NCBI RefSeq assembly: GCF_900167535.1
Contig: NZ_FUYE01000012.1
Span: 95,947-159,946, forward strand
From: Prosthecobacter debontii
GTDB lineage: Bacteria > Verrucomicrobiota > Verrucomicrobiia > Verrucomicrobiales > Verrucomicrobiaceae
Direction: 5' to 3'
Length of the DNA: 64,000 nucleotides
The notes beneath the pieces were generated by a model that saw only the letters and a list, made by a program, of their open reading frames with translations, had not been told where the DNA came from and searched no databases. A program made the position numbers and the translations under genes. Position 1 is the first letter of the stretch. Every line of letters starts with the position of its first letter. This document shows positions 46,811-62,761 of this stretch, piece by piece.

Positions 46811-48754
46811 ATGAACAACAACGAACAGGATCATGATCACGAAAAAGAATCCGGCTCTTGTGAGCACGGTCACGACAACACTTCGCTGCCACGCAACGCC
46901 CTTGTTATCATATCCGGGCTCGCTCTCGGCGTGGGCATGCTGGTAAACAATCCTCAGGCGAAAGACATCTTCTTTGCTGTTTCCTCTATCTCTGGAGGCT
47001 TGTTAGTGATCCCTGCGGCTTGGTCTGCGATTACCAAGAGACGCCTGGATATGAATGTCCTCATGACTGTCGCCGTCACAGGGGCATGGCTTATCGGTGA
47101 AGGTAATGAAGCTGCGGCGGTCGTCTTTTTGTTTGCCTTGTCTGAACTACTGGAGTCTTGGAGCGTCGGCAGGGCACGGCGTGCCATCGCCTCTCTGCTC
47201 AAGCTCGCCCCTGAGACCGCTCTAGTTCGTGATGCGGATGGAGACTATGAAGAAGTTCCGGTTTCTGAAGTGACCGTGGGTTCAGAAATCAGTATCCGTA
47301 GCGGAGCCCGCATTCCACTAGACGGCAAGGTCTCCAGCGGAAATTCGAGCGTCAACCAGGCTCCTATTACGGGTGAATCCATCCCCGTGGAGAAAGCAGC
47401 AGGTGACCCGGTTTTTGCAGGGACTATCAATGGTGAAGGTTCTTTGGTCGTCGAGGTAACCAAGGGGGCAAGCGATTCCAAACTGGCCCGCATCATCAAA
47501 CTGGTGGAAGAAGCTGAATCTCAGAAAGCGCCAACTCAGCGCTTCGTGGATAAGTTTGCCAGTATTTACACACCTGTGGTGTTTGTTGTTGCCATCTTGG
47601 TCGCCATCCTGCCCCCACTTCTTTCGGGGGCTGTCTGGTCTGAGTGGACCTATCGGGCTCTTGTTCTCTTAGTCATTGCCTGTCCATGTGCCCTCGTTAT
47701 TGCCACCCCTGTTTCCATCGTTTCTGGACTTACCGCTCTCGCTCGAAACGGCGTCTTAATCAAAGGTGGAGCTTATCTTGAGGCTGTTGGCAAACTCCGA
47801 GCTTTGGCCGTGGATAAAACCGGCACGATCACTCAGGGAAAACCTCAAGTTAGTGAAGTCATCACGATGACCTGGCTTGCAGAAGAAGAGATTCTTCGAC
47901 GCGCTGCATCTATCGATGCACATTCCACACACCCGCTTGCAAAGGCCGTCGTGGATACGGCTAAAAAACAGGAGATCGAATGGCAAACTTCATCAGACTA
48001 TAAATCGATCACGGGTCGTGGTGCTACGGCTAAAATTGATGGGCATCCTTATTTTATTGGGAATCACAAGCTAGCTCATGAATATGGGGTTTGCTCACCT
48101 GAGGTTGAATCCAAATTGGCTGAAGTGGAAGCCAGAGGGGAATCTGTGGCAATTGTCGGTCATCTTCCGCACAACTCCAACTCATGCCCTGGTGAAATTT
48201 TGGGAATCATTGGCATTGGCGATTCTCTTCGCTCTGAGGCGAAAGAAGCTCTCCGACTTCTTCATGACGCCGGAATCCAAAAGGTGGTTATGCTCAGTGG
48301 TGATAATCAAAGAACGGTGGATGCTATTGCTAAAAAAGCGGGGATAGATGAGGCGCTTGGGGACCTCATGCCGGAGCAAAAGATTGAGCATTTGCGTCGT
48401 CTGATGGATGAACACCGGTTTGTTGGCATGATCGGCGATGGAGTTAATGATGCTCCGGCCTTGGCCCTCGCCAGTGTTGGTATTGCAATGGGCGCTATTG
48501 GTAGCGATACTGCTATCGAAACCGCCGATATGGCGCTTATGCAGGATGATCTAACCAAGGTTGCTCAAGCAATCATTTTGGGCCGGAGGACATTACGAAT
48601 CATTCAATTCAACGTCACTTTTGCATTAGCGGTTAAAGCCGTGTTTTTAATTCTTGCCTTTACGGGCCATACCAGCCTTTGGCTCGCCATTCTTGCAGAC
48701 ACTGGAGCTACGCTTCTTGTTATTCTCAACGCGTTACGACTGCTGCGGCACTGA
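46811..48754 (+). CDS. P1B-type Zn/Cd/Pb-exporting ATPase
   Basis: The 647-residue pump has an N-terminal His/Asp/Glu-rich tail (NEQDHDHEKESGSCEHGHDN) in place of an HMA domain. P-type motifs are complete: TGES (PITGESIPVE), CPC in TM6 (IACPCALVIATP), DKTGT (AVDKTGTITQG), an HP motif (STHPLAKAV) and GDGVNDAPALA. TM7/8 carry Lys (ALAVKAVFLIL) and Asp in LADTGATLLVILNAL, the P1B-2 pattern for Zn(II)/Cd(II)/Pb(II). The ATG at 46811 was chosen over a GTG at 46733. The next gene follows after 14 bp. Confidence 0.93.
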   Translation: MNNNEQDHDHEKESGSCEHGHDNTSLPRNALVIISGLALGVGMLVNNPQAKDIFFAVSSISGGLLVIPAAWSAITKRRLDMNVLMTVAVTGAWLIGEGNEAAAVVFLFALSELLESWSVGRARRAIASLLKLAPETALVRDADGDYEEVPVSEVTVGSEISIRSGARIPLDGKVSSGNSSVNQAPITGESIPVEKAAGDPVFAGTINGEGSLVVEVTKGASDSKLARIIKLVEEAESQKAPTQRFVDKFASIYTPVVFVVAILVAILPPLLSGAVWSEWTYRALVLLVIACPCALVIATPVSIVSGLTALARNGVLIKGGAYLEAVGKLRALAVDKTGTITQGKPQVSEVITMTWLAEEEILRRAASIDAHSTHPLAKAVVDTAKKQEIEWQTSSDYKSITGRGATAKIDGHPYFIGNHKLAHEYGVCSPEVESKLAEVEARGESVAIVGHLPHNSNSCPGEILGIIGIGDSLRSEAKEALRLLHDAGIQKVVMLSGDNQRTVDAIAKKAGIDEALGDLMPEQKIEHLRRLMDEHRFVGMIGDGVNDAPALALASVGIAMGAIGSDTAIETADMALMQDDLTKVAQAIILGRRTLRIIQFNVTFALAVKAVFLILAFTGHTSLWLAILADTGATLLVILNALRLLRH

Positions 48755-48768
48755 TAATTTCTGCGGCT

Positions 48769-49170
48769 ATGAAGAAAAAACGTCCATTTAAATCTGGAGC
48801 CGACCCTAAGGTGGAGACCAAGAGTTTTGCATTTACATGGCGGGAGAGGTTGCTGATCGTCGGCTTGATCCTGGCTGGCTTTGTCGTGCCCGCCTACTGG
48901 ATGCATTCCAGATATATCAGTCTGCAAGCAAAATCTATCCAGAAGACCGTGCAGGAATGGCAACATCTCTACAATCTCAACGAGATCCAGGTGAAGTATA
49001 TTCAGGATATCGAACTTCAGTTTCACGGTAGTGGTAGCCCATTCTCAGGCCGTCCCTATCGAACACCCTCAGACATTGATCTTCATTATCAAGAGATCGC
49101 CGAGCTCATGACAGCAGAGAATGGGCAACGGTTTATGCAAGCGATGTCCGGAAATAACGGACATCATTAA
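48769..49170 (+). CDS. Single-span membrane protein downstream of the metal ATPase
   Basis: The 133-residue protein has a short basic N-terminus, one TM helix (LLIVGLILAGFVVPAYWM) and a helical extracytoplasmic part (QAKSIQKTVQEWQHLYNLNEIQVKYIQDIELQFHGSG), ending in NGHH. It lies 14 bp after the P1B ATPase and is probably co-transcribed. The helical part recalls small CnrY/CzcE-like or periplasmic metal-response proteins, but no family match is claimed. It is the last gene before the integrative element. Confidence 0.65.
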   Translation: MKKKRPFKSGADPKVETKSFAFTWRERLLIVGLILAGFVVPAYWMHSRYISLQAKSIQKTVQEWQHLYNLNEIQVKYIQDIELQFHGSGSPFSGRPYRTPSDIDLHYQEIAELMTAENGQRFMQAMSGNNGHH

Positions 49171-49243
49171 TGCTGTTTGTGTAGCAACGTTAATAGAACA
49201 GAATAAATTGCTAACGCAAAGCCCAGAGAGCTTCTCAACAGGT

Positions 49244-49475
49244 GGGGGTGTTTTTGGGGGTGCTAGGCAAAAACCAAAGCTATATTAGCTTTTATATTCT
49301 GTTTGTTAGGCGGAATCTTCGAGCCCTGCTCGCGGAGCCATTTACCCCATTTCACCGAGTCCCACGAGACTTGAAATTTCCCCTCAAACCCGCTATATTA
49401 GCTAAAGACAGCATCTCAGTCTGCCTTGGCAAGTCTTACCCAAGCCGGACCATTCTGGGGGTGTTGATGGGGGTG
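49244..49475. repeat. Candidate attachment region with integrase-type repeats
   Basis: Two kinds of paired repeat flank each other upstream of the integrase. GGGGGTG-N5-GGGGGTG occurs at 49244-49262 and 49457-49475. AGCTA-TAT-TAGCT (49278-49290) and its near-copy GCTATATTAGCT (49392-49403) lie inside. Double heptamers with a fixed gap are typical of arm-type integrase sites, and the inner palindromes suit core or excisionase sites. The core sequence that marks the insertion point cannot be fixed without the other end. Confidence 0.55.
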
Positions 49476-49494
49476 TCAACAGTGGTGAGGGACA

Positions 49495-50697
49495 ATGGCA
49501 TTAACGGAAAAAGAAATTCAGGCGGCACAGCCGCGAAGCAAAGCCTATAAATTGTACGATGGAAATGGTTTGCTGCTTCGGATAAAGCCGAACGGATCAA
49601 AGATTTGGGAATTCAAGTATAGAGCGTTCAAGGATGGCAAGAAAGTTGAGAAGATGCTTTCTCTGGGCGTTTGGGGTGAGGTCAGCCTAAAAGAAGCAAG
49701 AGCAAAAAGCGCGGAGGCCAAGAAGGTCGTTGCTGAGAGTAAAGACCCCGGCGCTTTAAAAAAGCAGCAAAAAATTTTAGCCAGAGTCAACTCAGACAAC
49801 TCCTTCGAAGCGGTCGCCCGTGACTGGCACAAACTCAATATTGCCAAATGGACTCCACGGCATGCCGTGAAGTTGCTGAGAAGGCTAGAACTTCATATCT
49901 TCCCATGGATTGGAACCAAGCCAGTAGCAGACATTACCGCTCTTGAAGTTGTCGATCTACTTCGCCGACTGGAGAAGGATGAGAAGACCGAGACTACTCA
50001 CAAGCTGTTGCAGGATTGCAGAGCAGTTTTCCAACATGCCTTTCTCCATCAGAAGATTCAGTTCAACCCGCTCAGTGATATGCGCGGATTGTTGAAGCCA
50101 CATTTGACCACAAACCATCCCACATTATCCGCCAATCAAATTCCAGACTTTTTGATCAGATTAGAAGCGGTTCAGACAACTCAACTGAACAGAATTGCGG
50201 TCAAGCTCTTGATGCACACGTTTGTTCGGCAGGGGGAGCTGCGCAAAGCAAAGTGGGCTAGCGTGGATTGGAAACAAGCAGAATGGCGTATCCCGCCTGA
50301 GAACATGAAAATGAAGCAAGAGCACGTTGTTCCGCTTTCAACTCAGGCGCTTGGAATACTCAGCGATCTGCAAAAGGTTTCAGGTGATAGCCTTTATCTA
50401 TTCCCGTCACAAAATCGCCAGAAAAATCCTTTCATGAGCGAGAACACAATCAACAAGGTCATTCATGAGATGGGATACAAGGGCCAACTAGTGGGCCATG
50501 GCTTTCGGGCGATGGCATCAACGATCCTGAATGAGAATGGCTTCGCTCCTGATGTCATTGAAAGGCAGTTGGCACACGCGCCCCGCAACAAAGTTCGGGC
50601 TGCATACAACCGCGCTCAATACCTCGAAGAACGAAGAAAGCTGATGCAATGGTGGAGCGACTACCTAGAGCGGGCCTGGAGAAAGGGCGCGGCCTAG
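49495..50697 (+). CDS. P4-type tyrosine recombinase (integrase)
   Basis: The 400-residue integrase has an N-terminal DUF4102-type arm-binding domain (MALTEKEIQAAQPRSKAYKLYDGNGLLLRI...GVWGEVSLKEARAKS), a SAM-like core-binding domain (residues about 100-190) and a catalytic domain with Arg in MHTFVRQGELRKAKW, H-x2-R in VGHGFRAMAS, His in QLAHAP and Tyr in AAYNRAQYL. All catalytic residues are present, so the element may still be mobile. GAGGGACA serves as ribosome-binding site. The cargo to the right is read mostly on the opposite strand. Confidence 0.95.
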   Translation: MALTEKEIQAAQPRSKAYKLYDGNGLLLRIKPNGSKIWEFKYRAFKDGKKVEKMLSLGVWGEVSLKEARAKSAEAKKVVAESKDPGALKKQQKILARVNSDNSFEAVARDWHKLNIAKWTPRHAVKLLRRLELHIFPWIGTKPVADITALEVVDLLRRLEKDEKTETTHKLLQDCRAVFQHAFLHQKIQFNPLSDMRGLLKPHLTTNHPTLSANQIPDFLIRLEAVQTTQLNRIAVKLLMHTFVRQGELRKAKWASVDWKQAEWRIPPENMKMKQEHVVPLSTQALGILSDLQKVSGDSLYLFPSQNRQKNPFMSENTINKVIHEMGYKGQLVGHGFRAMASTILNENGFAPDVIERQLAHAPRNKVRAAYNRAQYLEERRKLMQWWSDYLERAWRKGAA

Positions 50698-50957
50698 AGC
50701 TTCAGGTAACCTGAGAATACTGTTGTAATAATTAACGATAGCGTCAGGGCGTTTAGTCGGAGATGGCCTCCACATTGCAGCTGCAAACTGGCTTTGACCT
50801 TGTGTGTTGCTGCGCCCCATATACTCGATACCCCTTATGATATCCCATAGTGATGTGCGTTATTTTGGATTCTTGTGGCCTTTAAGAGACATAGCATAAC
50901 ACTGCAAAGACGGTACCGAATATGAAGTAGCTTATGGCGGAAAGTAAAAAATTTCGA

Positions 50958-51821
50958 CTAAATTAGATAAAAGTTTCCGTTGCAAAACCATTGGCTTTGA
51001 GATGCACCTCTATACATGGCACCTGTCCAGGAATTCGTAAATGCTTTCTCCCAGCTAATTGCCGCCTCGAGTAAATGTGCAGTAACTGCTGACGCTCCAT
51101 GTCCATCATATAACTTTTTTAGTTCATGACGAATACCACTGAGTTCGTTTGCTGCATTATTGCCATAGTGAAACTTTAGGTTGAAAGCTTCCATATGAGC
51201 CTCTAATCGTTGCCCATATAATGGAGGCCAATGTGCAGGTGGATTAATGTAGTATTCAAATGTTGGTGGGGTCGTTTGAATCACTCTTGCGCACAACCAC
51301 GTTTCAGATTCGAAGAACGAATCAAAGTAAGGATGCAGCGTTTGCTGATCTTGTGTAGCAGCTGTATCGGCCCGTTTCTCCATCTGACATGGCCAGCAAG
51401 AAGGGACTAGGTTATTTGGGGTGACCGATAGTACAGTATGTGCTGACTTAGGTAGGTAATGATCAAGGGTCCCAACCGATCCATTGTCACACAATGGACA
51501 GCGTCCCAACTTGGGAGCTGCGAGAATCTTATCATAGATCCTACGAGCTGGGTGCTTAATTTTTGAAAGGCGTTCAGAATAAATTGATTTCAATTCTTTT
51601 CCTGTAACATTTCCAACTTGGTCAGAGCGTGGTGTCGCATATAAATTTGCCGCATTGCCAGCAATATTATATAAATTCGCAGCATTAACTATATCAGGAC
51701 GGATTGCCTCTAACCTTTGTACCAGATCTGCATCAGATATAGAACTAATGCAAAGATCAAAAACATCACCAGCCGCATATTGGTTTCCAGTTTCGTCAGT
51801 TGGTATAGGGAGTGATTTCAT
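50958..51821 (-). CDS. ptuB: Septu-like HNH endonuclease (PtuB)
   Basis: The 287-residue protein has an HNH nuclease core with a zinc site: CPLCDNGSVGTLDHYLPKS and TPNNLVPSCWPCQMEKR (C-x2-C at residues about 108 and 142, catalytic DH about 120). The N-terminal half is helical and the C-terminal part unlike known domains. The ATG at 51821 lies one base after the stop of the ATPase gene. An HNH protein coupled to this type of ATPase is the Septu arrangement, in which PtuB is the effector nuclease controlled by PtuA. The internal start was chosen over an overlapping TTG. Confidence 0.85.
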   Translation of the reverse strand: MKSLPIPTDETGNQYAAGDVFDLCISSISDADLVQRLEAIRPDIVNAANLYNIAGNAANLYATPRSDQVGNVTGKELKSIYSERLSKIKHPARRIYDKILAAPKLGRCPLCDNGSVGTLDHYLPKSAHTVLSVTPNNLVPSCWPCQMEKRADTAATQDQQTLHPYFDSFFESETWLCARVIQTTPPTFEYYINPPAHWPPLYGQRLEAHMEAFNLKFHYGNNAANELSGIRHELKKLYDGHGASAVTAHLLEAAISWEKAFTNSWTGAMYRGASQSQWFCNGNFYLI

Positions 51822-51822
51822 A

Positions 51823-53436
51823 TTACTGACCTTGCAAATCAAGATAAATGGATCGTAAGATTACTCGAGCTTCGGTACCCAACTGATTGTTGAGGCCGGC
51901 TATGGCCTGATCATATGAAGGATATTTTGATGCGATATCCTTGAGAATTTGCATGTAACCAGACTGCTTGACATCTAAACCGAAAACTTCTCGTGTCAGG
52001 CTGCCGACGTTTTCTCCAAAGGTTTCTATGCCTGGTTTCTCAGCTCGCATTTCATGCCTCACTCGCCTTAAAACCCACACACAGCTCCTTGGCACTTCTT
52101 GCAACACAACAGGAGAGTGGGTGGCCACTATAGCGACACCATTTCTATCCACCAAGAGTTCAGACAGAGCCCGAACAAAAGCGGACAGCAAAGGCGGATG
52201 GAGGTAGGACTCAGGTTCATCCATCAATACTAGAGTCTGTTCTTCCACGGTTTGCACTAACCGTGTAAGAGTCAAAAGAATGATCTTGTGGCCTGAACTC
52301 AAAAGGTCAAATATCTTTAATACTCTCTCGCGGGTGTCTTCCGACGAAAGGTTCGTATCTATTAAATTTGTTATTCCTGCTGTATTGGCAACGAGATCAT
52401 ATTCAAGATGCTTCATTGCATTTTTCCAACGAGTCAGTTTACTGCCTACTTGGCATTCTTTCAGGCTGCGCACAAATTCGTCGGCAAGTTCATCATTTGT
52501 TTTAGGTGCTCCTAACGGAGATGGCTGTAGCGGATTTGTTGTGGTGCCATGTTGGGTGTCTTGACGTAATCCCACATAGGAATAACTTATCCTACTTTGA
52601 TCCAATTCATCTCGTGAAACTAGATCCGATGAATCGAAGGCACTAAAAGATACCAAAACAACATTAGAAAAACGCCCAACTTCTCTCGACAATGAAGGGC
52701 CCATCACGGTGTGATCCCATGTGAACTCACCAAACTGTTCTCTTTCCGCTTCAGTCCCTAAAACAGCTTTTGTCATATTAGACAATAAGCGTGTTTTACC
52801 AACTCCATTTCGGCCTATGATAACCTGGACATTCGTCGGTGGAACTGAATCAGGTATCACCGAAAAGCTCAGTGAATCGCTGGTTCCTTCTACATCTAGA
52901 GGTGGGGCGTACGAAAAATGGTAAGGCGTAAGATTTACCCCACCATGAGCAATTCTGCGATATTGACCTTCCACCATCGTTGTGGATACAGATCGGAGAA
53001 GAGATTCTCCCATAACATCTTCATGTTTGGCCCACTCGAAACGTGCAGCATCGAATGCTACGTCTCGCAAGTTGCCTAAAACCCATTTTCGAACATCGGG
53101 GCCCAACTCTCTGAGATTTGCATAATATTCATTTTCTTGTCCTAGGGAAAAGAACTGCTCGTCAAGAGCATGAAAAGCTTCAGGTATGTCGGGTCTACGA
53201 TAGCCTGGTTGAAGGTCGGCCCCGCCTCCAGATGGCAATAATCCTCTCTGGCCAATTTTAAGGTTTCCAATGCTATGTTTGGTGCCTGCTGGATCTACCA
53301 GAGTAAGGTAAAACTGAGTGCAATATTTTCCCCAGTCATCCCATCGGTCTTTGTTCAAGTAAGCTAACCAGCTCCCTGTGATCGATGGTACGCTTTCATT
53401 CTGTCTGATTACACGAAATGGAGGCGGGTTTGGCAT
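51823..53436 (-). CDS. ptuA: Septu-like ABC/SMC-type ATPase (PtuA)
   Basis: This 537-residue protein has an N-terminal region of about 190 residues before the Walker A (IIGRNGVGKTRLL, residues 206-218), then a long middle part, and Walker B with following loops (TLVLMDEPESYLHPPLL, GVAIVATHSPVVLQE). The ATPase belongs to the AAA_15/OLD-like group used by defence systems. It is followed after one base by the HNH gene, matching PtuA-PtuB. Retron Ec78 also uses such a pair, but no reverse transcriptase or msr/msd is nearby, so the stand-alone Septu form is favoured. The N-terminal region is longer than in typical PtuA. Confidence 0.85.
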   Translation of the reverse strand: MPNPPPFRVIRQNESVPSITGSWLAYLNKDRWDDWGKYCTQFYLTLVDPAGTKHSIGNLKIGQRGLLPSGGGADLQPGYRRPDIPEAFHALDEQFFSLGQENEYYANLRELGPDVRKWVLGNLRDVAFDAARFEWAKHEDVMGESLLRSVSTTMVEGQYRRIAHGGVNLTPYHFSYAPPLDVEGTSDSLSFSVIPDSVPPTNVQVIIGRNGVGKTRLLSNMTKAVLGTEAEREQFGEFTWDHTVMGPSLSREVGRFSNVVLVSFSAFDSSDLVSRDELDQSRISYSYVGLRQDTQHGTTTNPLQPSPLGAPKTNDELADEFVRSLKECQVGSKLTRWKNAMKHLEYDLVANTAGITNLIDTNLSSEDTRERVLKIFDLLSSGHKIILLTLTRLVQTVEEQTLVLMDEPESYLHPPLLSAFVRALSELLVDRNGVAIVATHSPVVLQEVPRSCVWVLRRVRHEMRAEKPGIETFGENVGSLTREVFGLDVKQSGYMQILKDIASKYPSYDQAIAGLNNQLGTEARVILRSIYLDLQGQ

Positions 53437-53559
53437 AGGTGAAAAATATTGGTTGTGAAGATATGTACGAGCTTATTTCTTCATCAGATCTGATGGCACA
53501 ATAATCTGTTGTAGTAAATATATTGCAACGTAATTTGCGCGGTTGATATTATATGGATC

Positions 53560-56500
53560 TTATATCAGATGTCGATAATCATATGAGCTCGAGGGCATTC
53601 CCGAAAGATAGTCTCCGTACCGCGCTATTGAGTTTGCTGAATCGATGGTGGAAGGAAGACGTGAATAATAATCAAAAGAATTCCAGTTCATTTTTGTTAA
53701 TCCAAGTATTTCAGTAGCGACTTGTGTAACATCAGAATGACCTCGGTAGCGTCTGATAAGGAGAGGCGCTGGGATTCTTCGTTTGCCTTGGTAATACTTG
53801 AACCTCGGGTTCTGGGTGTTTGGCGTCACTCCATGCACCCATAGGAGTGCAGTGTTTTTATCGAGTGAAACCAACGCGCCGCGTGGAATTGGAAAAGTAT
53901 CAATCTGTAATTGCCCATTATTAACTTTCGATGCCAAATATCGAATGGACTCTGAGACACAGATTTCAATAAGTTCCACGTTCGCAACGCCTTCTAACCC
54001 CTGCAATAGCCCCTGCTGTTCCTCTTCCGTGAATTGCGTACGCTTGTGTATCACCACGCGTGACGGGAGTTTCATTTTCGCATCATAGAACAGCTGCCGG
54101 ATGGTTTCTCCCATTCTTCTTGAATCATCTAAAGACATGAATGGATTGCCCTTTCGGAAAACTGGGTTTTCAATCCTCCCGAGGCGAAATTGCAGGCCTT
54201 CACCGCGAGCATTGTAGAGATGGCTACAGCCTAGGAGAATGTGGTTTCCAAGTGATGCTGCTGAATCTACACTATATCCAAGCCCCACGAATGCAGTTTC
54301 ATCATCAAGGCAATCGAGCCGCCATGGTGTTCGTTGCGCCTTGGCGTATAAAGCGAGCGACAGCCACCATCGGGTCCGGCAAGCTTGGCTCCCTAAAGTA
54401 GTTTTTTCTCTGATGAATTGCGTGCTCTGACCGTGTCGGGCTGCATAGGCTTTGACGAAGTTGTGTAGATCAAATCTTTCGCCGTCTGAGTCTATTCTTT
54501 CGTATGGTTCCCATCTGAACGGAACAAATATGGCGACAACGGCGGCAGGCCTCAGCGACCTGATAACGTCAAGCGAACGGCAGATTCTTTGTGCCAAATC
54601 TTTGGCTGCATTAATGGGCTCTCCAATCAGGTTGTCATCAAGCCCAAGCCAAAGCTCGTCTCCTGGTACAGGCGACTTCAGCGGCAATGCGAATGCAGAT
54701 GTGAACCCAGGAAAGTCTCTCAGATAGTCAGACTCTTTGCTGTCGGCTTTTGATGTCTCATGGAATTGATTGAGAAACCGTCGGAGCTTATGGGCATCGC
54801 TTTGAGGGCAGATTGCACCCATTTCCACTTCTGGGCATAGTGCTGAAGAGGTCAGCTTGTAGTCCCATGGTTTGTTCAGAACAAGACCTCTCAATGGATT
54901 GCTATCCTTGACTTCAGACTTGCCATTGGAAGATGTAAAAACAAGTGGAGCATCTGGTATGATCCAACCCTTTTGGTGAGCAAAGCGAAGGACTTCTCGG
55001 GGAAGCGGTGCTTGGCCTGCCTGGATTAGCCCTGCGCAGGATGGTGATGCAGGAATTTTAAAGTAAGCGCCGGATGGATCTAGAATTTCTTTGCCGCAAA
55101 TCTTGGCGGTCCAATTTTTGATCTCAGTATCAAAGACGGCGTTGTACTGACTGGCGTATACTTTTGATCTGACAATTTTTGTTATGTCTTTCTCGGCTAG
55201 CTCCCCAGATGGTGTAAACACCATGATCTCAGGCATGAGTGTAACAAATAGCTTTCCACCCACTGGTTCTATCCTCAACGCCAGTGCTTTGTGTAGGTTA
55301 TAATTGATACCGTTAAAGAAGTGGGTGTCATAACTGACCGGTTCCCAGATCCTCCTGCTCATATCTGACTTTAACCTCAGCTTATTAGCCAAGTTTGTAA
55401 CTAACGCACGTCGGTATAACGATAGTATTCTGCCGTCATTCAATACATCGGCCTGAGAAACGGCAGTAGCGACGGGACTGTTTACTAATTCTGAACCAAA
55501 TGCTTCCATTAGCGTCTGGCCATCAGCTAATGCCAAGACGCCGCCATCAACTGAAACAATAGTTCCGGGTCTAGCCCCCCATTTGTCATTCAGCCAATGC
55601 CGGGGCTTAATTCCTGGTGGGATTGTAAGGGTGCCCTTTAGGGCAGTGTGCGGGATAATCAGCGGGTAAGCATTACTTTTTATCAGAGAAGTTGGTGTCT
55701 GCTCCGGGCTCAAGAATGGCGCGGGGCCAGAGATGCCAGAGCTGAAGTCGCTCATCATTTGTTGGACTTCCTTCAGGGAGCTGCTGTCCATCAATCTGAG
55801 GGCAAATCTGGAGATCACATCGTCAAAGCCTTCAGTGGGGACGTAAAACGCTTCGCGTCCTGCGCTTCCGGCTTTATTCAACAACTGCTCAACTTCGGAA
55901 GGAATGGAACTGCCAAAGCCGCACCAAAAAAGTCGGCAATCTCCGGCTTTTGAATAAGTCTCTTCCAGGAGGCTCATGACAGAAGCGTCTCGTCCGCTGT
56001 AGCCAAGTACGATAAGATCGTAATCCTGTAATTCGTGGAGAAACTCATCGCGCAACAGGCCTTCCTGCTCCTGCAACTCCGAGGCGGTGTTTTTGAGTTT
56101 ATCGTATCGATAGTCGCCATGTAGTGAGACCACTCTTAGCTCCCCGGCTTTTGCAGGCCTGTTAGCACGGAAAGCGGTATCGATGCCGACCTCAATGCAG
56201 GTCACATCGAATTTAGCTGCTGCGTTACAAGCTAGACCATCAAAATTGGTCGTCCAGATTGTTTGAATGACCCCAATTTTTGCCAGTTTGGCAATGAGTC
56301 GGTACCCAATGTGCGGTTGGGCTTTGGAGACATAAGACTGAAAGAACGCTCTCCTGTCCTGGCTGGTAGGATAGCACTTTGCCGCGTAAAAAGAATATTC
56401 TTCCGGGTCGTCCAAAGGTGGATACTCAGCCCGTTGATCGAGCCATTGCTGAATCCTTTGTCGAGTGCCAGGAAGGGACAGCTCGCTCACCGATTCTCTC

Positions 56501-56691
56501 AAGAGAGGGTTGTTCGTAATGAATATATCCTGTTTCCATTCCCAGATACATCTCTGTCCCGATGGCATACCGGAAGATATTGATGCACCGGCCCCGAGAA
56601 AGAGACAAATAGGACGGTCGCGGTTGACTGCAACGGATCTAACCAGCTCATCAATTTGAAGAATTTTCGTAATTTCTTTCAGCGGCATCAT
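53560..56691 (-). CDS. Single-chain SIR2-APAZ-PIWI short Argonaute (fused SPARSA)
   Basis: The 1043-residue protein joins three parts. Residues about 25-290 are a SIR2-type NADase: CLFLGAGASISSG (31-41), WTTNFDGL (146-153), SLHGDYRYD with His191, and IVLGYSGRD (227-235). The middle (about 330-580) fits the APAZ region. The C-terminal half matches a short Argonaute MID-PIWI: FVGLGYSVDS, HILLGCSHLYNARGEGLQ, PSRVVIHKRTQF, and FDYYSRLPSTIDSANSIARYGDYL. The PIWI Asp of active slicers is absent (GLGYSVDS), as in other short Argonautes. Two-gene and fused forms are known to deplete NAD+ when a guide finds invading DNA. The Septu pair lies 123 bp downstream on the same strand. Confidence 0.88.
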   Translation of the reverse strand: MMPLKEITKILQIDELVRSVAVNRDRPICLFLGAGASISSGMPSGQRCIWEWKQDIFITNNPLLRESVSELSLPGTRQRIQQWLDQRAEYPPLDDPEEYSFYAAKCYPTSQDRRAFFQSYVSKAQPHIGYRLIAKLAKIGVIQTIWTTNFDGLACNAAAKFDVTCIEVGIDTAFRANRPAKAGELRVVSLHGDYRYDKLKNTASELQEQEGLLRDEFLHELQDYDLIVLGYSGRDASVMSLLEETYSKAGDCRLFWCGFGSSIPSEVEQLLNKAGSAGREAFYVPTEGFDDVISRFALRLMDSSSLKEVQQMMSDFSSGISGPAPFLSPEQTPTSLIKSNAYPLIIPHTALKGTLTIPPGIKPRHWLNDKWGARPGTIVSVDGGVLALADGQTLMEAFGSELVNSPVATAVSQADVLNDGRILSLYRRALVTNLANKLRLKSDMSRRIWEPVSYDTHFFNGINYNLHKALALRIEPVGGKLFVTLMPEIMVFTPSGELAEKDITKIVRSKVYASQYNAVFDTEIKNWTAKICGKEILDPSGAYFKIPASPSCAGLIQAGQAPLPREVLRFAHQKGWIIPDAPLVFTSSNGKSEVKDSNPLRGLVLNKPWDYKLTSSALCPEVEMGAICPQSDAHKLRRFLNQFHETSKADSKESDYLRDFPGFTSAFALPLKSPVPGDELWLGLDDNLIGEPINAAKDLAQRICRSLDVIRSLRPAAVVAIFVPFRWEPYERIDSDGERFDLHNFVKAYAARHGQSTQFIREKTTLGSQACRTRWWLSLALYAKAQRTPWRLDCLDDETAFVGLGYSVDSAASLGNHILLGCSHLYNARGEGLQFRLGRIENPVFRKGNPFMSLDDSRRMGETIRQLFYDAKMKLPSRVVIHKRTQFTEEEQQGLLQGLEGVANVELIEICVSESIRYLASKVNNGQLQIDTFPIPRGALVSLDKNTALLWVHGVTPNTQNPRFKYYQGKRRIPAPLLIRRYRGHSDVTQVATEILGLTKMNWNSFDYYSRLPSTIDSANSIARYGDYLSGMPSSSYDYRHLI

Positions 56692-56916
56692 CCAGCATTA
56701 CCAGCCTTGAAATTCTATGTCAAATGACTGATCAGTATGTCCCACAATGCCTGGAAGATGTTGGGATTATTCGGATTATTCGGATTATTAATGTGATTTT
56801 TATCGGTCTGAGAATGCCCAGTCACAGCCAATCTGAGCTCTTAATTTAACAACCAGTGGTTGTGGTGGTATGATGTCTTCAAGCGCATACAGTGTGCGTG
56901 ACTTGGAGATAAGAAA

Positions 56917-57111
56917 ATGTGGAAGAAAGAAACATTGCCTAGTGAGGGCTTTGTGAGGTTGCCGTTAATTTTAAAACTGATTCCAGTGGGGCGTTCGACT
57001 TGGTGGGCCGGAGTCAAAAGCGGACGGTTTCCTAAGGGTATCAAGCTTGGCAAAAACACGACTGCCTGGAGGGCGGAAGACATCAGACGGTTGATGGAGA
57101 GTTTTCAATGA
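56917..57111 (+). CDS. AlpA-like excisionase/transcription regulator
   Basis: The 64-residue protein has the MerR/AlpA winged-helix pattern: GFVRLPLILKLIPVGRSTWWAGVKSGRFPKGIKLGKNTTAWRAEDIRRLMESFQ. In P4-like elements AlpA proteins switch on integrase or serve as excisionase. GGAG stands 12 bases before the start codon. It diverges from the SIR2-Argonaute gene; the space between holds three copies of ATTCGGATT near 56765-56790. Confidence 0.85.
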   Translation: MWKKETLPSEGFVRLPLILKLIPVGRSTWWAGVKSGRFPKGIKLGKNTTAWRAEDIRRLMESFQ

Positions 57112-57119
57112 TGCGCCAT

Positions 57120-57791
57120 TCACCATACTCGTTGCCGTTTAACTTTGGCTTTGCGGATGGGAGCGGGGAGGTCGGCTTGCGATGTGTTGCCAGAGCCAAA
57201 TCCTTCTTCGGCATCGTTCATTGCGTCGCGGTAGCGTTTGCGTTGACGAATCTGCAGCCAGTAGTTGATCCCTTCTTTGAGGAACATGGCAAAGGCTGTG
57301 TAAATCAGCCATGATGAGAGGTTGTTCACTGCCTGACCGCCCAAACGCAGTATCAGGGCCGCTGAGAGAACGAGGGCGGGTTCAACCACCATCACCACCA
57401 AGTTGCGAAGCTCAGATGTCGTTTCCGTTTTTAACCAACTCAGAAGGCGGAGAATGTGCGGGGTGCCGGAATCATTGTCATGCGTGGCGGTGTCGCGTAC
57501 TTCGGTCACGTAAACGCTGATGAGATGAAACATGTAAAGGGTGGCAGAGGTGCAGCCAAACAAGCATAACCCTTTGTTGGTTCGCCAGACGGCTGGCTCG
57601 TTCCAGGCATAAATGCTAAAAAGAATAAATGCCCACGAGCCAGCCAGAAAAATGCTTTTGGGTCGAAGAAACGCATATCCAAAGCTGCTTCGAAGGAACA
57701 CAAGGACGGTCATGGACATGCAGTGCAGAATCGCGCTGAGCAGTGGGATGCGCTGCTGAGCATGAGTTTGTTCGACCTGCCTGTCTTTCAT
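57120..57791 (-). CDS. Membrane protein coupled to the transfer ATPase
   Basis: The 223-residue protein has about five predicted TM helices (MSMTVLVFLRSSFGYAFL, IFLAGSWAFILFSIYAW, GLCLFGCTSATLYMFHLISVYV, LVVMVVEPALVLSAALILRL, WLIYTAFAMFLKEGINYWL) and a basic C-terminus (RKAKVKRQRVW). Its ATG overlaps the stop of the TraD-like gene by 3 bases (ATGA at 57788-57791). It may anchor the coupling ATPase, which itself lacks TM helices (inference). The longer frame upstream lies within the ATPase gene and was rejected. Confidence 0.75.
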   Translation of the reverse strand: MKDRQVEQTHAQQRIPLLSAILHCMSMTVLVFLRSSFGYAFLRPKSIFLAGSWAFILFSIYAWNEPAVWRTNKGLCLFGCTSATLYMFHLISVYVTEVRDTATHDNDSGTPHILRLLSWLKTETTSELRNLVVMVVEPALVLSAALILRLGGQAVNNLSSWLIYTAFAMFLKEGINYWLQIRQRKRYRDAMNDAEEGFGSGNTSQADLPAPIRKAKVKRQRVW

Positions 57792-59314
57792 CCGTAGATC
57801 TGGTTGAAGCTGTGACGGATGTAGTTTTGGGCGACTGGCTTTTTGCTGTTTGAGCCGAGCCATCGCCTGCCTCCCTGGAAGATGATTGAGTCTACCAGAA
57901 AGCCTGATTCCCGTCCCCCTGTACGAAGGGTGGTGAATTCCTGCGGTTGGACAAGGTATTCAAAAACCTGGCTGCCGCTGGCGCTCTGGTTGAGATTGCC
58001 CGGTTGACCTTTGCCATTCACGGCTTCCGAAAGTCCGCCTGACAGGCGTATTTGTTTGGTTCTTCCAAGCGTGTTTGCTGCCCAGTTGTTGGTCGTGGAA
58101 TCACCGTTCGCATGGAAGATCTTGGTCTGGAGGTTTCCGAGGAAGGCGTCAACTTCGGAACGGGCATTGTGACCACTGAAGGCGGCATGGTAGCTGGGCA
58201 GGTTTTGGGTCAAGTAAACCGTGCAGGCGCGGGAACTTCGCGCCGTGCTCTGGAACATAGCATCATAGGAGCTGGCAAAAAATTGGGATTCGTCCGCCCA
58301 TAAGAACACCGGGCGGATGGTTTGCTCGGCTTTCTCCCTTGAGGTTCCTGGCGGGATGCGCCGTTCAACGGCCCTTTGCCAGACAAACTTGAAGAGCACT
58401 TGGGCAAACTGGCCCAGCTCGTTGTATTCTTTCACAGGCAGGTTCAGGATGATGATCTTGCCGCTAAAACTATCTTCCGGGCTGAAGTTCAGATCGGTGC
58501 AGAAGAGCTTGCGGAGCATCCCGCGCAAGAAACAATCCGCCATACTGGTAAAGCTGGAAACAATCACCGAGCGGGTTTCGGGAGCGAGCGCGGGAAATTC
58601 CAGCAGCCAATAGTTCCGGGTAAGTTCCCAATCGGTTTCCTTGCCTGCGTCTATGGCAGGCTGACGGGCATGTTCGATGAGGGTATGGCAGACAGAGGTG
58701 CTTTGCCATTTTCCATCATCTGCTTCGGTGGGAGATCGAGGAGCGGAAGTGATGATACGATAGAGGCCGGGGAGATCCACGTCATTGGTAGCGAGAACCG
58801 CCAGATCAATGGCACTGCGCAGGAGTTGTTTTAGAGTGCGCTGCCAGTAGCTATCTTGAGCACCTGAACCTCCCTGGCGTTTTTCCGCGGATTCCATCAC
58901 CGCGCAGAAGAGATTGACCAGATTCTCGGTGTGGCCTGCGCCAACTCCAGGGCGTTGCAACTCGTAGCGCAGGAAGTTGAACCGATGGGCGGAGTTTTCC
59001 TCCACAATCAGCAGGTCGGGTTCGCGGCCAGTCTCTTTAGCATAGGTTTTCCAATTCAAGACCTCATCCGGTTTGGCCGTCAACACCAGCCCACCCAGAT
59101 TGGCTTCGAGCATTGCCCTGGCGACAGCGTGCCCGCTTCCGGAGGATTTGCCTGACCCGGTGCCGCCAAAAATCTGCAAGCCTTCAAATGCATCTCCCAG
59201 GCTCCAGTAATTCTCAGCGAGACGTTTGGGACCAAAAGCCAGAAGTTCCTCATCGTTGTCCGGCCAATCCTTGACGGTAGTCGTCTCGCGCGATTCTGGG
59301 GATGGGCCATTCAT
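57788..59314 (-). CDS. TraD/VirD4-like type IV coupling ATPase
   Basis: The 508-residue ATPase has Walker A in LQIFGGTGSGKSSGSGHAV (residues about 46-64), a central domain, and Walker B plus TraM-recognition region VFLWADESQFFASSYDAMFQSTARSSRACTVYLTQNLPSYHAA. Coupling proteins bring relaxase-bound DNA to a type IV secretion channel. N-terminal TM helices usual in VirD4 are absent; the coupled membrane protein downstream may supply them. No relaxase or secretion genes lie in view, so this is either part of a larger ICE reaching beyond the window or a mobilisable remnant. Confidence 0.88.
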   Translation of the reverse strand: MNGPSPESRETTTVKDWPDNDEELLAFGPKRLAENYWSLGDAFEGLQIFGGTGSGKSSGSGHAVARAMLEANLGGLVLTAKPDEVLNWKTYAKETGREPDLLIVEENSAHRFNFLRYELQRPGVGAGHTENLVNLFCAVMESAEKRQGGSGAQDSYWQRTLKQLLRSAIDLAVLATNDVDLPGLYRIITSAPRSPTEADDGKWQSTSVCHTLIEHARQPAIDAGKETDWELTRNYWLLEFPALAPETRSVIVSSFTSMADCFLRGMLRKLFCTDLNFSPEDSFSGKIIILNLPVKEYNELGQFAQVLFKFVWQRAVERRIPPGTSREKAEQTIRPVFLWADESQFFASSYDAMFQSTARSSRACTVYLTQNLPSYHAAFSGHNARSEVDAFLGNLQTKIFHANGDSTTNNWAANTLGRTKQIRLSGGLSEAVNGKGQPGNLNQSASGSQVFEYLVQPQEFTTLRTGGRESGFLVDSIIFQGGRRWLGSNSKKPVAQNYIRHSFNQIYG

Positions 59315-59841
59315 ACAGGGTTATGCGGAAGCCGAACGTCCAATACGAAACATGCATTAAACGATCAACAAAATTTCTACGCATCCTTAACCTACAGACA
59401 AAATTAACGCTTGTTCGCATCCCATAAAATCTAACACCTGATGTTAATTTTTCACGGTCTTGGCGGAAAGTGGAACGGCAGCACCAGCGGAGCGGGATGC
59501 GGCTGGGATTTGCCCCCCTTAGCTGTGCTAAGGAGAGATGTCTGAAAGAAAAACTTCAACTTTAATATGTTCATGTGAACTCGTTAATTACGGACGGGCG
59601 GTAACGGCATTTTAGGATCAGACGCGGAGTGGTATCATGGTCACAAGTGCATAAAATTGAGACCTCGATAGTTCACGGCAAAAAGCCTCTCGCTTGACCA
59701 AGATGACACGGTGCTCTTACGAACACCTATGCGGGATGTGCAAATATTGTGATGCTTAAGTAAGTGAAATGGTCTAGTTTTGCAAAATACCTGCTACCGG
59801 TTGATCAGGTATCCTTCACGAAACCTTTTTCTTACGCTCCC
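59315..59841. other. Gene-free interval in the element
   Basis: About 530 bp without a credible frame separate the transfer ATPase from the next plus-strand genes. Composition is mixed, with AT-rich parts around 59400 and 59560. A promoter for the divergent genes must lie here; no palindrome or origin-like repeat could be defined. Confidence 0.5.
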
Positions 59842-60540
59842 ATGGACTCCCTTGAAATGACGGCGGTCGTTCTGACAACGATTACAGCATTTGCACAGCT
59901 GGTGGTGACATTCTCAGCGCAAAAAACTGCGAAAAGGGGCAATCAGCCAAACGCAGCGATGGTTACCTCGCTTGTCGCCCGGGTCAAAACCCTGTTGAAA
60001 ATTGCAACATTTTCGATGCTCGTGAATTTGGCGGCTTGTGTAGTTCTTATTTATCAAGCACATGAGTCAGAGAGGGCTAAAGAAGCAGCCGACCTTACGC
60101 TGAAAAAAGTTCAGACGGAGCTAAAGGAGGCGGAAGGTAAGCTAAAGCGCTCGTCGGAGGATGTGGTTCAGCGGGTCGTTAAAAAACTCAAGGCAGATTT
60201 TCACCGCTGCCTTTTGACTTGTGAGGAAGAGATCACAAAGGACAAGATGTGGGCTCCGAACTCAGGTGCGAAAAAGGAGGCAATTTTAGGGCAAGTCGAA
60301 AATATCCGCGCGAATATGGAGACCTCTTTAGATCGCTGCGAGGCAGACACTTTCGCGTTAATCTCGGTCTTTCCCGAAGGAGAACCGGAATTTCAACCGC
60401 TTCAAGAACTCCAGCGAGCAGCACGACAAGACATTGTTCAGGAAATGCAGGAGGCGACGATTGGCGAACAATCCCTAGATCAGCTGCGCACTCAGATCCT
60501 TAATCGCATTGCGTCAGCTCGGAAACAGCTTGTAAAATAG
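59842..60540 (+). CDS. Membrane protein with coiled coil, unknown function
   Basis: The 232-residue protein (ATG 59842; GTG 59764 also possible) has two N-terminal TM helices (MTAVVLTTITAFAQLVVTFSA and IATFSMLVNLAACVVLIYQA) and then a long coiled coil (ERAKEAADLTLKKVQTELKEAEGKLKRSSEDVVQRVVKKLK). The C-terminal part is helical. It precedes a small exported protein by 10 bp. No homologue is recognised. Confidence 0.65.
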   Translation: MDSLEMTAVVLTTITAFAQLVVTFSAQKTAKRGNQPNAAMVTSLVARVKTLLKIATFSMLVNLAACVVLIYQAHESERAKEAADLTLKKVQTELKEAEGKLKRSSEDVVQRVVKKLKADFHRCLLTCEEEITKDKMWAPNSGAKKEAILGQVENIRANMETSLDRCEADTFALISVFPEGEPEFQPLQELQRAARQDIVQEMQEATIGEQSLDQLRTQILNRIASARKQLVK

Positions 60541-60550
60541 TCCGTATATC

Positions 60551-61078
60551 ATGAAGTATAAAGACATGTTCGACCTAGGAAAAAAATCAAACTTATGCAA
60601 GTTTACTGCCTTTGCGCTGTGGCTTTCTTCAACGCCTGCTTTCAGTGTTGATGGGCATGCTTTGAATTCGTCGAGTCTTCGGATTTTCGACAAGGGGCTA
60701 CGGCAGGCCTGTGCGCAGTTCGACAGCGCGATTGCCCGATACAGATCTGCTGCTTTTCATGGGGAAAATGAACTTCTAGAAGTTGTTAAAGGTTCACAGA
60801 GCGTTTTTGTCCAGAGCGTCTGTTTCAGGCAATCATACGGTGACGAAGCTTGGTCTCGCGCAAGAGGGGTGGTGGACAGCTTGTATGAGGAATGTAGCAA
60901 AGTTGTCCAAAGCACAGAGTTTCAAGGTGTAGGGAAAGAGATTGTTGAGAATTGCGAGCAAATGATCAACACCCACATGAAAGGGCTTCAGGTGCAGCAT
61001 GTCATTCTGAACCTGACCGCAAGCGCCCCGAGCGTTTATCGGGTGCGTGAAGAGCCTGTTCTAAGTGCGTCGCGGTAA
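60551..61078 (+). CDS. Exported helical protein, paralogue of the convergent gene
   Basis: The 175-residue protein has a signal peptide (FTAFALWLSSTPAFSV). Its mature part can be aligned with the protein encoded at 61036-61464: LRIFDKGLRQA with LEIFDRPLRNA, and QSVFVQSVCFRQSYGDEAW with QSLYMQASRYKQAYGTRGW, then helices VVDSLYEECSKVV and IVEELLESSLRSL. The genes face each other and overlap by 43 bp at their 3' ends. No family is recognised. Several Cys are present only in this copy. Confidence 0.65.
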   Translation: MKYKDMFDLGKKSNLCKFTAFALWLSSTPAFSVDGHALNSSSLRIFDKGLRQACAQFDSAIARYRSAAFHGENELLEVVKGSQSVFVQSVCFRQSYGDEAWSRARGVVDSLYEECSKVVQSTEFQGVGKEIVENCEQMINTHMKGLQVQHVILNLTASAPSVYRVREEPVLSASR

Positions 61079-61464
61079 CGCTTCACTGTTTCCAGGGAGT
61101 CCGCAGAAGCTTGTTTGTTTTCTAGACTCCGGAGAGAAGATTCGAGCAATTCTTCCACGATTTCCCCCCCGCGTTCTTGCCATCCTCGAGTGCCGTAAGC
61201 TTGTTTGTAACGGGAAGCCTGCATGTAAAGGGATTGGCTTCTTAAAACAGCTTCTTGTTCAAAGCTTATATTCCCTTGTTTTGTGGAAATCAGCTCAAGG
61301 AGCGAAAGACTGGCGTTACGAAGTGGCCGGTCGAAGATTTCGAGCTGAATGCGTTGAGCTGTGGCGGGAGATGGTTCAACTGCCGTGGTGAATTGCGCAT
61401 AAGAAACGGCCAGTGGTGCAATGACCATGGCCCTGAAGCCAGCTATTTTCTTTGTGTATTCCAT
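61036..61464 (-). CDS. Exported helical protein, convergent paralogue
   Basis: The 142-residue protein has a hydrophobic N-terminus (GFRAMVIAPLAVSYAQFTTAV) fitting a signal peptide and a helical mature part similar to the 60551-61078 product. It has no Cys, in contrast to its paralogue. The last 43 bp overlap the other gene on the opposite strand. Tail-to-tail paralogues of this sort arise by inverted duplication. Function unknown. Confidence 0.6.
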   Translation of the reverse strand: MEYTKKIAGFRAMVIAPLAVSYAQFTTAVEPSPATAQRIQLEIFDRPLRNASLSLLELISTKQGNISFEQEAVLRSQSLYMQASRYKQAYGTRGWQERGGEIVEELLESSLRSLENKQASADSLETVKRYRDALRTGSSRTR

Positions 61465-61853
61465 AATAATTATAATAGTTCATAAATTTTTAATTTTGTC
61501 AATATTTCTGGTATTCATAACCATTGGTATGGCTAACAGCCGATTTTTCGGGGTGGCAAGCGAGAGAGTGGTGGTTCTCGAAGCCTCATATGGGGATACG
61601 TCTCGCAACAGGAGACACCAAAATCTCATAGTTGGAAGGACTCTTGGCATTTGGGGGATCATTCGGAGAATGGGGCACGTAACATTGCTACTGAGAGTCG
61701 GAAGGAGTGTTGTGAAGAGAATCTGTAAGAGTCACCAGTCTCACAGGTTGATCGATATCACTCCAGAGGCTGTATGCCTTGCTCATTGCTGCGCGGTCAT
61801 TGCCCTTTTAACCGGGATCATGCAATAGGAACGCAAGAGATGAGTTGTAGCGT
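61465..61853. other. AT-rich interval without a supported gene
   Basis: A frame of 135 codons (61421-61828) crosses this interval, but it starts inside the upstream gene on the other strand, has no ribosome-binding site and shows no motif beyond a hydrophobic patch from the AT-rich segment. Nothing else was seen. Confidence 0.5.
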
Positions 61854-62145
61854 TTGATTGAGCAGGGGATTGACGCATGTGCAAAATTCACCCTAATGGT
61901 GAATCTGCCCATTGAGTATTCCGACAAGCCGGTGACGCCTTTTGGTGGCATGGCCTTGATGAAACGCTTCATCGACCAGACCGGCATTCGTGAGCATTGG
62001 CCACCTTGGACCTCCCGGAAGGGGGCTCCAACCGCGCTTATGATCCGGTGAACATCATCGAGAGCTTCTGGCTCGGGATCTGGAGCAATGGAATGGCTGA
62101 AGCGGGACTGTTAATCGTCAAAATGTGGTGAGGAGGAACGCTACC
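61854..62145 (+). pseudogene. Transposase remnant (IS1380-like)
   Basis: The first frame reads NLPIEYSDKPVTPFGGMALMKRFIDQTGIREHWPPW, and after a frameshift the next reads LDLPEGGSNRAYDPVNIIESFWLGIW. Together these match the N-terminal part of a transposase of IS1380-like type. The catalytic middle is missing; a further stretch to about 62330 (LGQQGRSAANDYCLSVWL, VVKLAIERSGAMPEEVKWARHLAKQRS) may belong to other element debris. No terminal inverted repeats could be identified. Confidence 0.65.
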
Positions 62146-62404
62146 GAAACTCGAACCGTTCAATTCTAAAGGCACGCCTCGGGCAGCAAGGAAGAAGCGC
62201 AGCGAATGACTATTGCCTGAGCGTCTGGTTAGAGGGGGTGGTGGTCAAGCTGGCCATTGAACGCAGTGGAGCGATGCCGGAGGAGGTTAAGTGGGCGAGG
62301 CATCTGGCAAAGCAGCGGTCATAGGCGGGCTTGAAATGGACGGCAGGCGCAGAGCCCACGGGTGGGCCGGGCGGGCACTTTTCTTTTGACTAGGATTTCA
62401 GTCG

Positions 62405-62704
62405 TTAGAGCAGGCAGCCCTGCCGCTGGCTGGTAAGGTAAGTCTGCCACTCAGGTGAATGGGCGGCTGTGTCCAGGATGATGCGGACGGCTTCCACTGG
62501 GCCGCCAGCCTCGGCTACCGTTCCGGCAGGGAGATAATGGGAGAGGTAGCCTGTTTCGGAGATGGGCAGCGGGGTCTTGAAGGGACAGACCGACCGAATT
62601 CCAAGATGGTCGAAGATGTACAGGTTGGGAGTGTAAGCGATCTCAATGTCGATTGCCAGATGGCCTGAAATCCATGTGAAGTGATAGCGCTGTGCTGGTC
62701 TCAT
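62405..62704 (-). CDS. Hypothetical mobile-element protein
   Basis: The 99-residue protein starts MRPAQRYHFTWISGHLAIDIEIAYTPNLY and contains PVEAVRIILDTAAHSPEWQTYL. It has no signal or TM segment. AGGAACAAACT precedes the ATG. It lies downstream of the methyltransferase gene across a strong hairpin. No function is recognised. Confidence 0.6.
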   Translation of the reverse strand: MRPAQRYHFTWISGHLAIDIEIAYTPNLYIFDHLGIRSVCPFKTPLPISETGYLSHYLPAGTVAEAGGPVEAVRIILDTAAHSPEWQTYLTSQRQGCLL

Positions 62705-62731
62705 AGTTTGTTCCTATTGAGGTTTGATAAA

Positions 62732-62761
62732 CCTCCCAGGCCAGTGCGTGGGCCTGGGAGG
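62732..62761 (-). terminator. Hairpin between the methyltransferase gene and its neighbour
   Basis: CCTCCCAGGCC-N8-GGCCTGGGAGG is a perfect 11-bp stem; on the minus strand it is followed by TTTATC. It starts 10 bp after the methyltransferase stop and probably ends or attenuates transcription before the last small gene. Another hairpin (GGCGGG/CCCGCC) lies between the two genes at about 63781-63801. Confidence 0.65.

What the first reader, a model, noticed from the sequence alone, without database searches (positions are those of the whole stretch)
53560..56691. Single-chain SIR2-APAZ-Argonaute immune protein
NADase, APAZ and catalytically inactive PIWI parts are fused in one 1043-residue chain, while most known systems are two genes. 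Fused forms are rarely studied, and this one comes from a lineage far from the characterised examples. The expected action is guide-triggered NAD+ loss and growth arrest upon plasmid or phage entry.
Basis: partly seen in the sequence, partly recalled or inferred. Interest (0 to 1): 0.75.

Follow-up and report, generated by a model that had tools for sequence, protein, structure and literature searches.

The report
Single-chain SIR2-Argonaute defence protein (S1A)
This gene encodes an intact bacterial immune protein that probably destroys the cell's NAD+ when it recognises invading DNA; it is real, but it belongs to an already named, widespread class of fused SIR2-APAZ-Argonaute proteins.

Summary
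In detail: window 53560-56691, minus strand, is one intact 1043-residue ORF reading SIR2 (about 10-310), APAZ (about 330-553) and MID-PIWI (about 569-1043). The Asn-His pair essential for NADase activity in GsSPARSA is kept (N149, H191), the MID 5'-phosphate residues are kept, and the PIWI slicer residues are lost. An AlphaFold2 model matches both SPARSA subunits in the PDB (Z 36.2 and 28.2). Guide-RNA/target-DNA-triggered NAD+ depletion is the best mechanism; no activity was shown here. The novelty claim does not hold: SIR2-APAZ-pAgo fusions were reported in 2009, surveyed in 2018, form named subclade S1A, and have a full-length PADLOC model. In a genome scan 26 of 29 related loci are intact one-chain relatives; all 28 one-chain rows on my tree form one clade apart from five split systems, and the nearest rows come from three phyla. 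Less ordinary is the context: the same genome (probably Prosthecobacter) also has a two-gene SPARSA, whereas no second SPARSA-type Argonaute was found in 28 other genomes with this gene; and the gene lies near an integrase, a coupling-protein-like ATPase and a TrwC relaxase, beside a Septu-like pair. New member of a known kind; interest low.

The parts
53560..56691 (-). Single-chain SIR2-APAZ-MID-PIWI protein, 1043 aa (S1A short pAgo)
55762..56664 (-). SIR2 NADase domain, about residues 10-310; N149 and H191 align with GsSir2 N142 and H186
   Evidence: boundaries approximate
55033..55704 (-). APAZ (N-L1-L2-like) region, about residues 330-553
   Evidence: structural match of residues 11-553 to SPARSA SIR2-APAZ chain 8y80_E, Z 28.2, rmsd 5.7, 502 aligned; boundaries approximate
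53563..54987 (-). MID-PIWI region, about residues 569-1043; 5'-phosphate residues H743, K747, Q758; slicer positions S807, R884, N1020
   Evidence: 8jkz_B Z 36.2, rmsd 2.6, 457 aligned
51823..53436 (-). Neighbour, not taken as part of the system: AAA ATPase, PtuA/PDC-M01A-like
   Evidence: PADLOC PDC-M01A 629 bits, PtuA 563 bits; NCBIfam PtuA only 44 bits against a cut-off of 500
50958..51842 (-). Neighbour, not taken as part of the system: HNH-like protein, PDC-M01B (PtuB-like)
   Evidence: PADLOC PDC-M01B 315 bits; Pfam HNH only E 0.24, below its cut-off
49495..50697 (+). Tyrosine integrase at the left of the low-GC stretch
   Evidence: Pfam Phage_integrase 1.3e-24, Phage_int_M, Arm-DNA-bind_3
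57788..59314 (-). Conjugative coupling-protein-like ATPase
   Evidence: T4SS-DNA_transf 24.4 bits (cut-off 20.1) and TraG-D_C 24 bits (cut-off 22)

Best explanation
A single-chain SPARSA protein of the S1A subclade. Inferred mechanism, by homology: the MID pocket loads a 5'-phosphorylated small RNA; the APAZ and MID-PIWI lobes form one Argonaute-like channel in which the guide pairs with invading DNA; the dead PIWI works as a sensor of pairing; a conformational change, possibly with oligomerisation, opens the SIR2 pocket, which hydrolyses NAD+ and stops the cell before a plasmid or phage can spread. Shown here: intact ORF, domain order, folds, kept SIR2 and 5'-phosphate residues, lost slicer residues, and clade. 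Inferred: RNA guide, DNA target, NADase activity, oligomerisation, protection.
For: Sequence match of both halves to GsSPARSA. Model matches SPARSA Ago at Z 36.2 (residues 569-1043) and SPARSA SIR2-APAZ at Z 28.2 (residues 11-553) (Foldseek). N149 and H191 align with GsSir2 N142 and H186, whose alanine mutants lost NADase activity (PMC10781750, passages); both are invariant in 28 of 28 one-chain rows and 5 of 5 split rows. H743 and Q758 align with GsAgo H166 and Q181, named as 5'-phosphate contacts; with K747 they are invariant in the same 28 and 5 rows. Against TtAgo (L068), D478 falls on S807, D546 on R884, D660 on N1020, and E512 in a gap (catalytic numbering of TtAgo recalled). All 28 one-chain rows are one side of a branch with support 100/100, and so are the 5 split rows with 98/94.
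Against: No activity, guide or phenotype was tested. Residues 192-200, just after H191, are modelled with pLDDT under 50, so the active-site loop is uncertain. N184, R190 and N195 of GsAgo, which contact the first guide bases, fall by the alignment on R761, G767 and R772, so guide preference may differ. The two source papers disagree on whether target binding makes SPARSA oligomerise: no in PMC10474274, yes in PMC12205087 (citing a paper not held).
Confidence: 0.9

Rival explanations
1. The protein is a SPARSA relative whose SIR2 domain is triggered by something other than guide:target pairing, for example a phage protein as in DSR2, the Argonaute part being only a scaffold.
For: Guide-base contacts of GsSPARSA are not kept; SIR2 NADases triggered by phage proteins exist (abstracts of DSR2 papers in the listing).
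Against: 5'-phosphate residues H743, K747 and Q758 are invariant in 28 of 28 one-chain rows, which is hard to explain if no guide is bound.
Confidence: 0.05
2. The fused Ago and the adjacent Septu-like ATPase/HNH pair form one three-gene system.
For: Same strand, 123 nt apart in the window; a similar pair also lies beside the fused Ago in Dyella, L037 (ORFs).
Against: In the other 28 genomes examined, a PDC-M01B match lies beside the Ago in 1 of 28 (Dyella, G461); 12 of 28 have some match, the other 11 on other contigs or about 64 kb away. The order differs (Ago-A-B here, A-B-Ago in Dyella). The nearest relatives L011 and L014 have DNA methyltransferase genes beside the Ago instead.
Confidence: 0.04
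3. The gene is intact but no longer functional (decaying cargo of a mobile element).
For: Low GC against the left flank, 0.483 for the gene against 0.564 for window 1-46000; no clear promoter-like site for it (where the scan found fewer sites than shuffles).
Against: No stop or frameshift over 1043 codons; all catalytic and binding positions examined are kept.
Confidence: 0.03

Closest known systems
S1A short pAgos (SIR2-APAZ-pAgo fusions; PMC12205087 passages; group Ia of PMC6299218, passages; PADLOC PDLC02384)
   Same: Domain order, one chain, about 1040-1070 aa, inactive PIWI, full-length profile match of 1324 bits
   Different: Nothing structural found; host phylum and genomic neighbours only
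GsSPARSA, Geobacter sulfurreducens (PDB 8in8, 8jkz, 8y7z, 8y80; S1B, two genes)
   Same: SIR2 Asn-His pair, APAZ and MID-PIWI folds, 5'-phosphate residues
   Different: One chain here, two there; guide-base residues N184, R190, N195 are not kept (alignment)
Two-gene SPARSA of the same genome (G000:C7; L042:9244-10974 and 7805-9247, minus strand)
   Same: SIR2-APAZ and MID-PIWI with the same key residues
   Different: Split, with genes overlapping by 4 nt; other clade; MID-PIWI about 32-33% identical
SPARTA (TIR-APAZ/pAgo)
   Same: MID-PIWI fold and general logic
   Different: Effector is SIR2, not TIR; no TIR match in Pfam at E<=1

Membership tests
SPARSA, subclade S1A | SIR2, APAZ and MID-PIWI in one chain | tested here: met
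SPARSA, subclade S1A | SIR2 Asn-His pair | tested here: met
   N149 and H191
SPARSA, subclade S1A | PIWI without the DEDX tetrad | tested here: met
   S807, gap, R884, N1020 against TtAgo, (hhalign probability 77.6; TtAgo catalytic numbering recalled)
SPARSA, subclade S1A | Groups with published S1A sequences on a tree | tested here: inconclusive
   All 28 one-chain rows form one clade (100/100) apart from 5 split rows, but no row was a sequence labelled S1A in print
SPARSA, subclade S1A | RNA-guided, target-DNA-triggered NADase | not testable with these tools
   needs purified protein
SPARSA, subclade S1A | Protection against plasmid or phage with NAD+ loss | not testable with these tools
   needs an in vivo assay
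SPARSA, subclade S1B (two genes) | SIR2-APAZ and pAgo as separate genes | tested here: not met
   one open frame
SPARTA | TIR effector domain | tested here: not met
   Only SIR2_2 found in Pfam at E<=1; SIR2 part aligns with a SPARSA SIR2-APAZ chain
Long-A slicing pAgo | DEDX catalytic tetrad | tested here: not met
Septu / PDC-M01 as one system with the Ago | Constant co-occurrence of the pair and the Ago | tested here: not met
   beside the Ago in the window and in 1 of 28 other genomes

The most novel reading that the evidence does not exclude
The cell runs two parallel SPARSA sensors of different ages and different guide rules: a chromosomally separate split S1B system and a single-chain S1A system carried as cargo of an integrative mobilisable element, which uses it to shut out rival elements. 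The loss of the GsSPARSA guide-base residues would give the two systems different guide pools and so prevent cross-activation.
Probability: 0.12. Interest if true: 0.45.

Novelty: new member of a known kind. Interest (0 to 1): 0.2.

Why it matters
It extends a named immune protein class to a host that is probably a Prosthecobacter and gives an intact single-chain example. A one-chain SPARSA is convenient for biochemistry because stoichiometry is fixed. The co-residence of fused and split SPARSA in one genome would allow a direct comparison of the two in the same cytoplasm. It does not change what is known of the mechanism.

Tried and rejected
Tried without result: naming the host by 16S against the plasmid collection gave at best 77.7% identity over the full length (Burkholderia); 11 records had 95-99% identity, but none of them is among the 20 listed rows, which are ordered by coverage times identity, so they are probably short pieces. 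Attachment-site search: no exact shared 16-mer between window 48701-49520 and the contig from 50701 to its end, either strand. tRNA genes in the window: 0. Rfam matches in 48000-64000: 0 at gathering score. Promoter and terminator scans were at or near shuffle level: 7 sites against a mean of 10.5, and 8 against 6.9. Paper searches with 'Caballeronia cryophila' plus Argonaute, 'Paraburkholderia graminis' plus Argonaute, and Verrucomicrobi plus Argonaute, SIR2 and 'defense systems' gave 0 papers each.

Rejected: an open frame by chance; a TIR effector; an active slicer; a fixed Ago-Septu system; phage-borne origin (4 of 50,697 phage records matched, none over 80% of the query). Among plasmids 123 records matched and 1 covered 80% or more of the query; that record and the next three by rank are two-gene systems; I looked at 4 of the 123.

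Limits of the tree: the pattern scan started from the fused protein, so it favours near relatives; the 5 split rows and 10 other Agos were picked by hand from hits; the program warned of long branches that meet and of odd letter make-up in 4 rows; the root is a midpoint. Rows dropped: L029 (925 aa, cut by the contig end) and L039 (128-aa frame, C-terminal fragment). L030 (interrupted) was kept as a row without a group and fell inside the fused clade.

Full report
Observation. The ORF at 53560-56691 lies on the minus strand, starts with ATG and runs 1043 codons without a stop. Pfam sees only SIR2_2 (residues 144-262, E 2.3e-9); NCBIfam gives only weak CobB-type matches far below cut-off. PADLOC sees the whole chain: PDLC02384 'pAgo', residues 9-1043 of the protein on 3-1030 of 1030, 1324 bits, and PDLC02420 Aga_SIR2-PNTD1-PNTD2, 636 bits. 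By sequence the PDB gives GsSPARSA Ago for residues 593-1041 (E 3.4e-46) and GsSIR2-APAZ for residues 26-361 (E 8e-30).

Structure. An alignment of 27 one-chain proteins gave an AlphaFold2 model with mean pLDDT 81.1 and pTM 0.65; stretches under 50 include 192-200, next to the active-site histidine, and 1004-1016. The four best Foldseek matches in the PDB are SPARSA Ago chains. VIA-align gives 8jkz_B Z 36.2 (rmsd 2.6, 457 aligned, residues 569-1043) and the SIR2-APAZ chain 8y80_E Z 28.2 (rmsd 5.7, 502 aligned, residues 11-553). Eukaryotic PIWI proteins align over residues 325-1043 at Z 25-26, so APAZ plus MID-PIWI together have the outline of a long Argonaute.

Residues. N149 and H191 align with N142 and H186 of GsSir2, the pair whose mutants lost NADase activity (PMC10781750, passages). 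Both are invariant in 28 of 28 one-chain rows and in 5 of 5 split rows. H743 and Q758 align with GsAgo H166 and Q181, contacts of the guide 5'-phosphate; K747 aligns with Gs K170, where the paper's text as held prints K70, so I do not claim that identity. All three are invariant in the same rows. The base-contacting GsAgo residues N184, R190 and N195 align without gaps with R761, G767 and R772, so the 5'-AU preference of GsSPARSA need not apply. Against TtAgo, three of the four slicer positions fall on S807, R884 and N1020 and the fourth in a gap (numbering of the TtAgo residues recalled). PIWI is therefore expected to be inactive.

Relatives. A scan of genome contigs found 29 loci. In 26 of 29 one open frame covers the whole match; L029 is cut by its contig end, L039 is a 128-residue frame, and L030 (Caldilineaceae) is interrupted near the APAZ-MID junction. 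With the window and L045 that makes 28 one-chain rows. On a MID-PIWI tree of 44 rows these 28 are one side of a branch (100/100), the 5 split rows another (98/94), and 10 other short Agos a third (100/100) (caveats under Tried and rejected). The window protein sits in a supported set of five rows (100/100) with a Verrucomicrobiia MAG (L011, 61% identity), Acidithiobacillus ferrivorans (L014, 62%), Dyella silvatica (L037, 53%) and Bryocella elongata (L012, 53%): three phyla, which suggests horizontal transfer (identities). In its own phylum the full-length one-chain form was found in 2 of 387 genomes, own included, and any match in 18 of 387. Among 56 near relatives, own included, 8 match, and apart from the own genome only in part.

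Two systems in one cell. The own genome also has a two-gene SPARSA on contig C7: SIR2-APAZ of 576 aa and pAgo of 480 aa, overlapping by 4 nt (L042). In 28 other genomes with the family the same model found no second MID-PIWI match at E<=0.001; 27 of the 28 have the full-length form and one the interrupted form; the three extra matches cover only the SIR2 part.

Context. To the left lies a tyrosine integrase; between it and the Ago a PtuA/PtuB-like pair on the Ago's strand; to the right a coupling-protein-like ATPase. Just outside the window, on the same contig, is a TrwC relaxase (L040:18343-19998, 242 bits) and further on two tyrosine recombinases. GC is 0.489 for 49200-63600 against 0.564 for 1-46000. 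This looks like an integrative mobilisable element, but no attachment repeat was found, and I did not search for mating-pair genes. The Septu-like pair is beside the Ago here and in Dyella only (1 of 28 other genomes), in another order; the NCBIfam PtuA model scores far below its cut-off. In L011 and L014 the Ago follows a DNA methyltransferase gene with 3 and 12 nt between them, in L011 with an endonuclease-domain gene further upstream. The neighbours vary while the Ago stays whole, so I take the Ago as a complete module.

Host. Four Tubulin_C matches over cut-off in two tandem pairs on contig C9, with none in 14 control genomes, point to Prosthecobacter, of which bacterial tubulins are a hallmark (recalled). 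No tool named the host.

What is known. Makarova 2009 reports SIR2-PIWI fusions (PMC2743648, passages). [quoted passage not shown] PMC12205087 gives the names S1A for fusions and S1B for operons (passages). PMC10810196 notes that NADase-APAZ proteins are sometimes fused to the pAgo (passages). PMC10954474 says some short pAgos form single functional polypeptides and assumes no major functional difference between one and two chains (passages). Papers disagree on SPARSA oligomerisation (PMC10474274, passages and section 12; PMC12205087, passages). Zaremba 2022, Garb 2022, Koopal 2022 and Cui 2024 were not held; nothing of them was read.

Verdict. The observation and the mechanism stand as a well-supported inference; the claim of rarity does not. 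New member of a known kind, interest 0.2.

Noticed in passing
G000:C7:65813-68940 (L042:7805-10974, minus strand): A second, two-gene SPARSA (SIR2-APAZ 576 aa, pAgo 480 aa, 4-nt overlap) in the same genome; GC 0.449 against 0.543 for the 19-kb stretch.
   Followed up: partly
window 50958-53436, minus strand: PtuA/PtuB-like (PDC-M01A/B) defence pair next to the Ago; a promoter-like site (11 of 12) at 53575-53548 could serve it separately, though the scan is at chance level.
   Followed up: partly
window 49495-50697 and 57788-59314; L040:18343-19998; L041:8795-9361 and 10783-11880: Integrase, coupling-protein-like ATPase, TrwC relaxase and two more tyrosine recombinases: probable integrative mobilisable element.
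   Followed up: partly
G000:C9:14014-15914 and 234832-236648: Four Tubulin_C matches in two tandem pairs, as expected of bacterial tubulins BtubA/B; none in 14 control genomes.
   Followed up: no
L030:1463-4704 (Caldilineaceae MAG): Close relative broken near the APAZ-MID junction: two frames overlapping by a few bases, no clear start codon for the second before the conserved part; frameshift, error or split unknown.
   Followed up: no
L011:3157-5982 and L014:2944-5925: N6_N4 DNA methyltransferase genes end 3 and 12 nt before the fused Ago in two of the closest relatives.
   Followed up: no
window 56763-56789, minus strand: Three tandem copies of AATAATCC[G/C], about 70-100 nt upstream of the Ago start; possible operator (read by eye).
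   Followed up: no
window 41561-44740 and 46733-48754, plus strand: CusA/CzcA-type efflux pump and heavy-metal P-type ATPase left of the integrase.
   Followed up: no
phage record MT837260.1, 5461-7287: A 7.3-kb 'Bacteriophage sp.' record from human faeces carries a match to residues 11-609, 29% identity, running to near the record's end.
   Followed up: no
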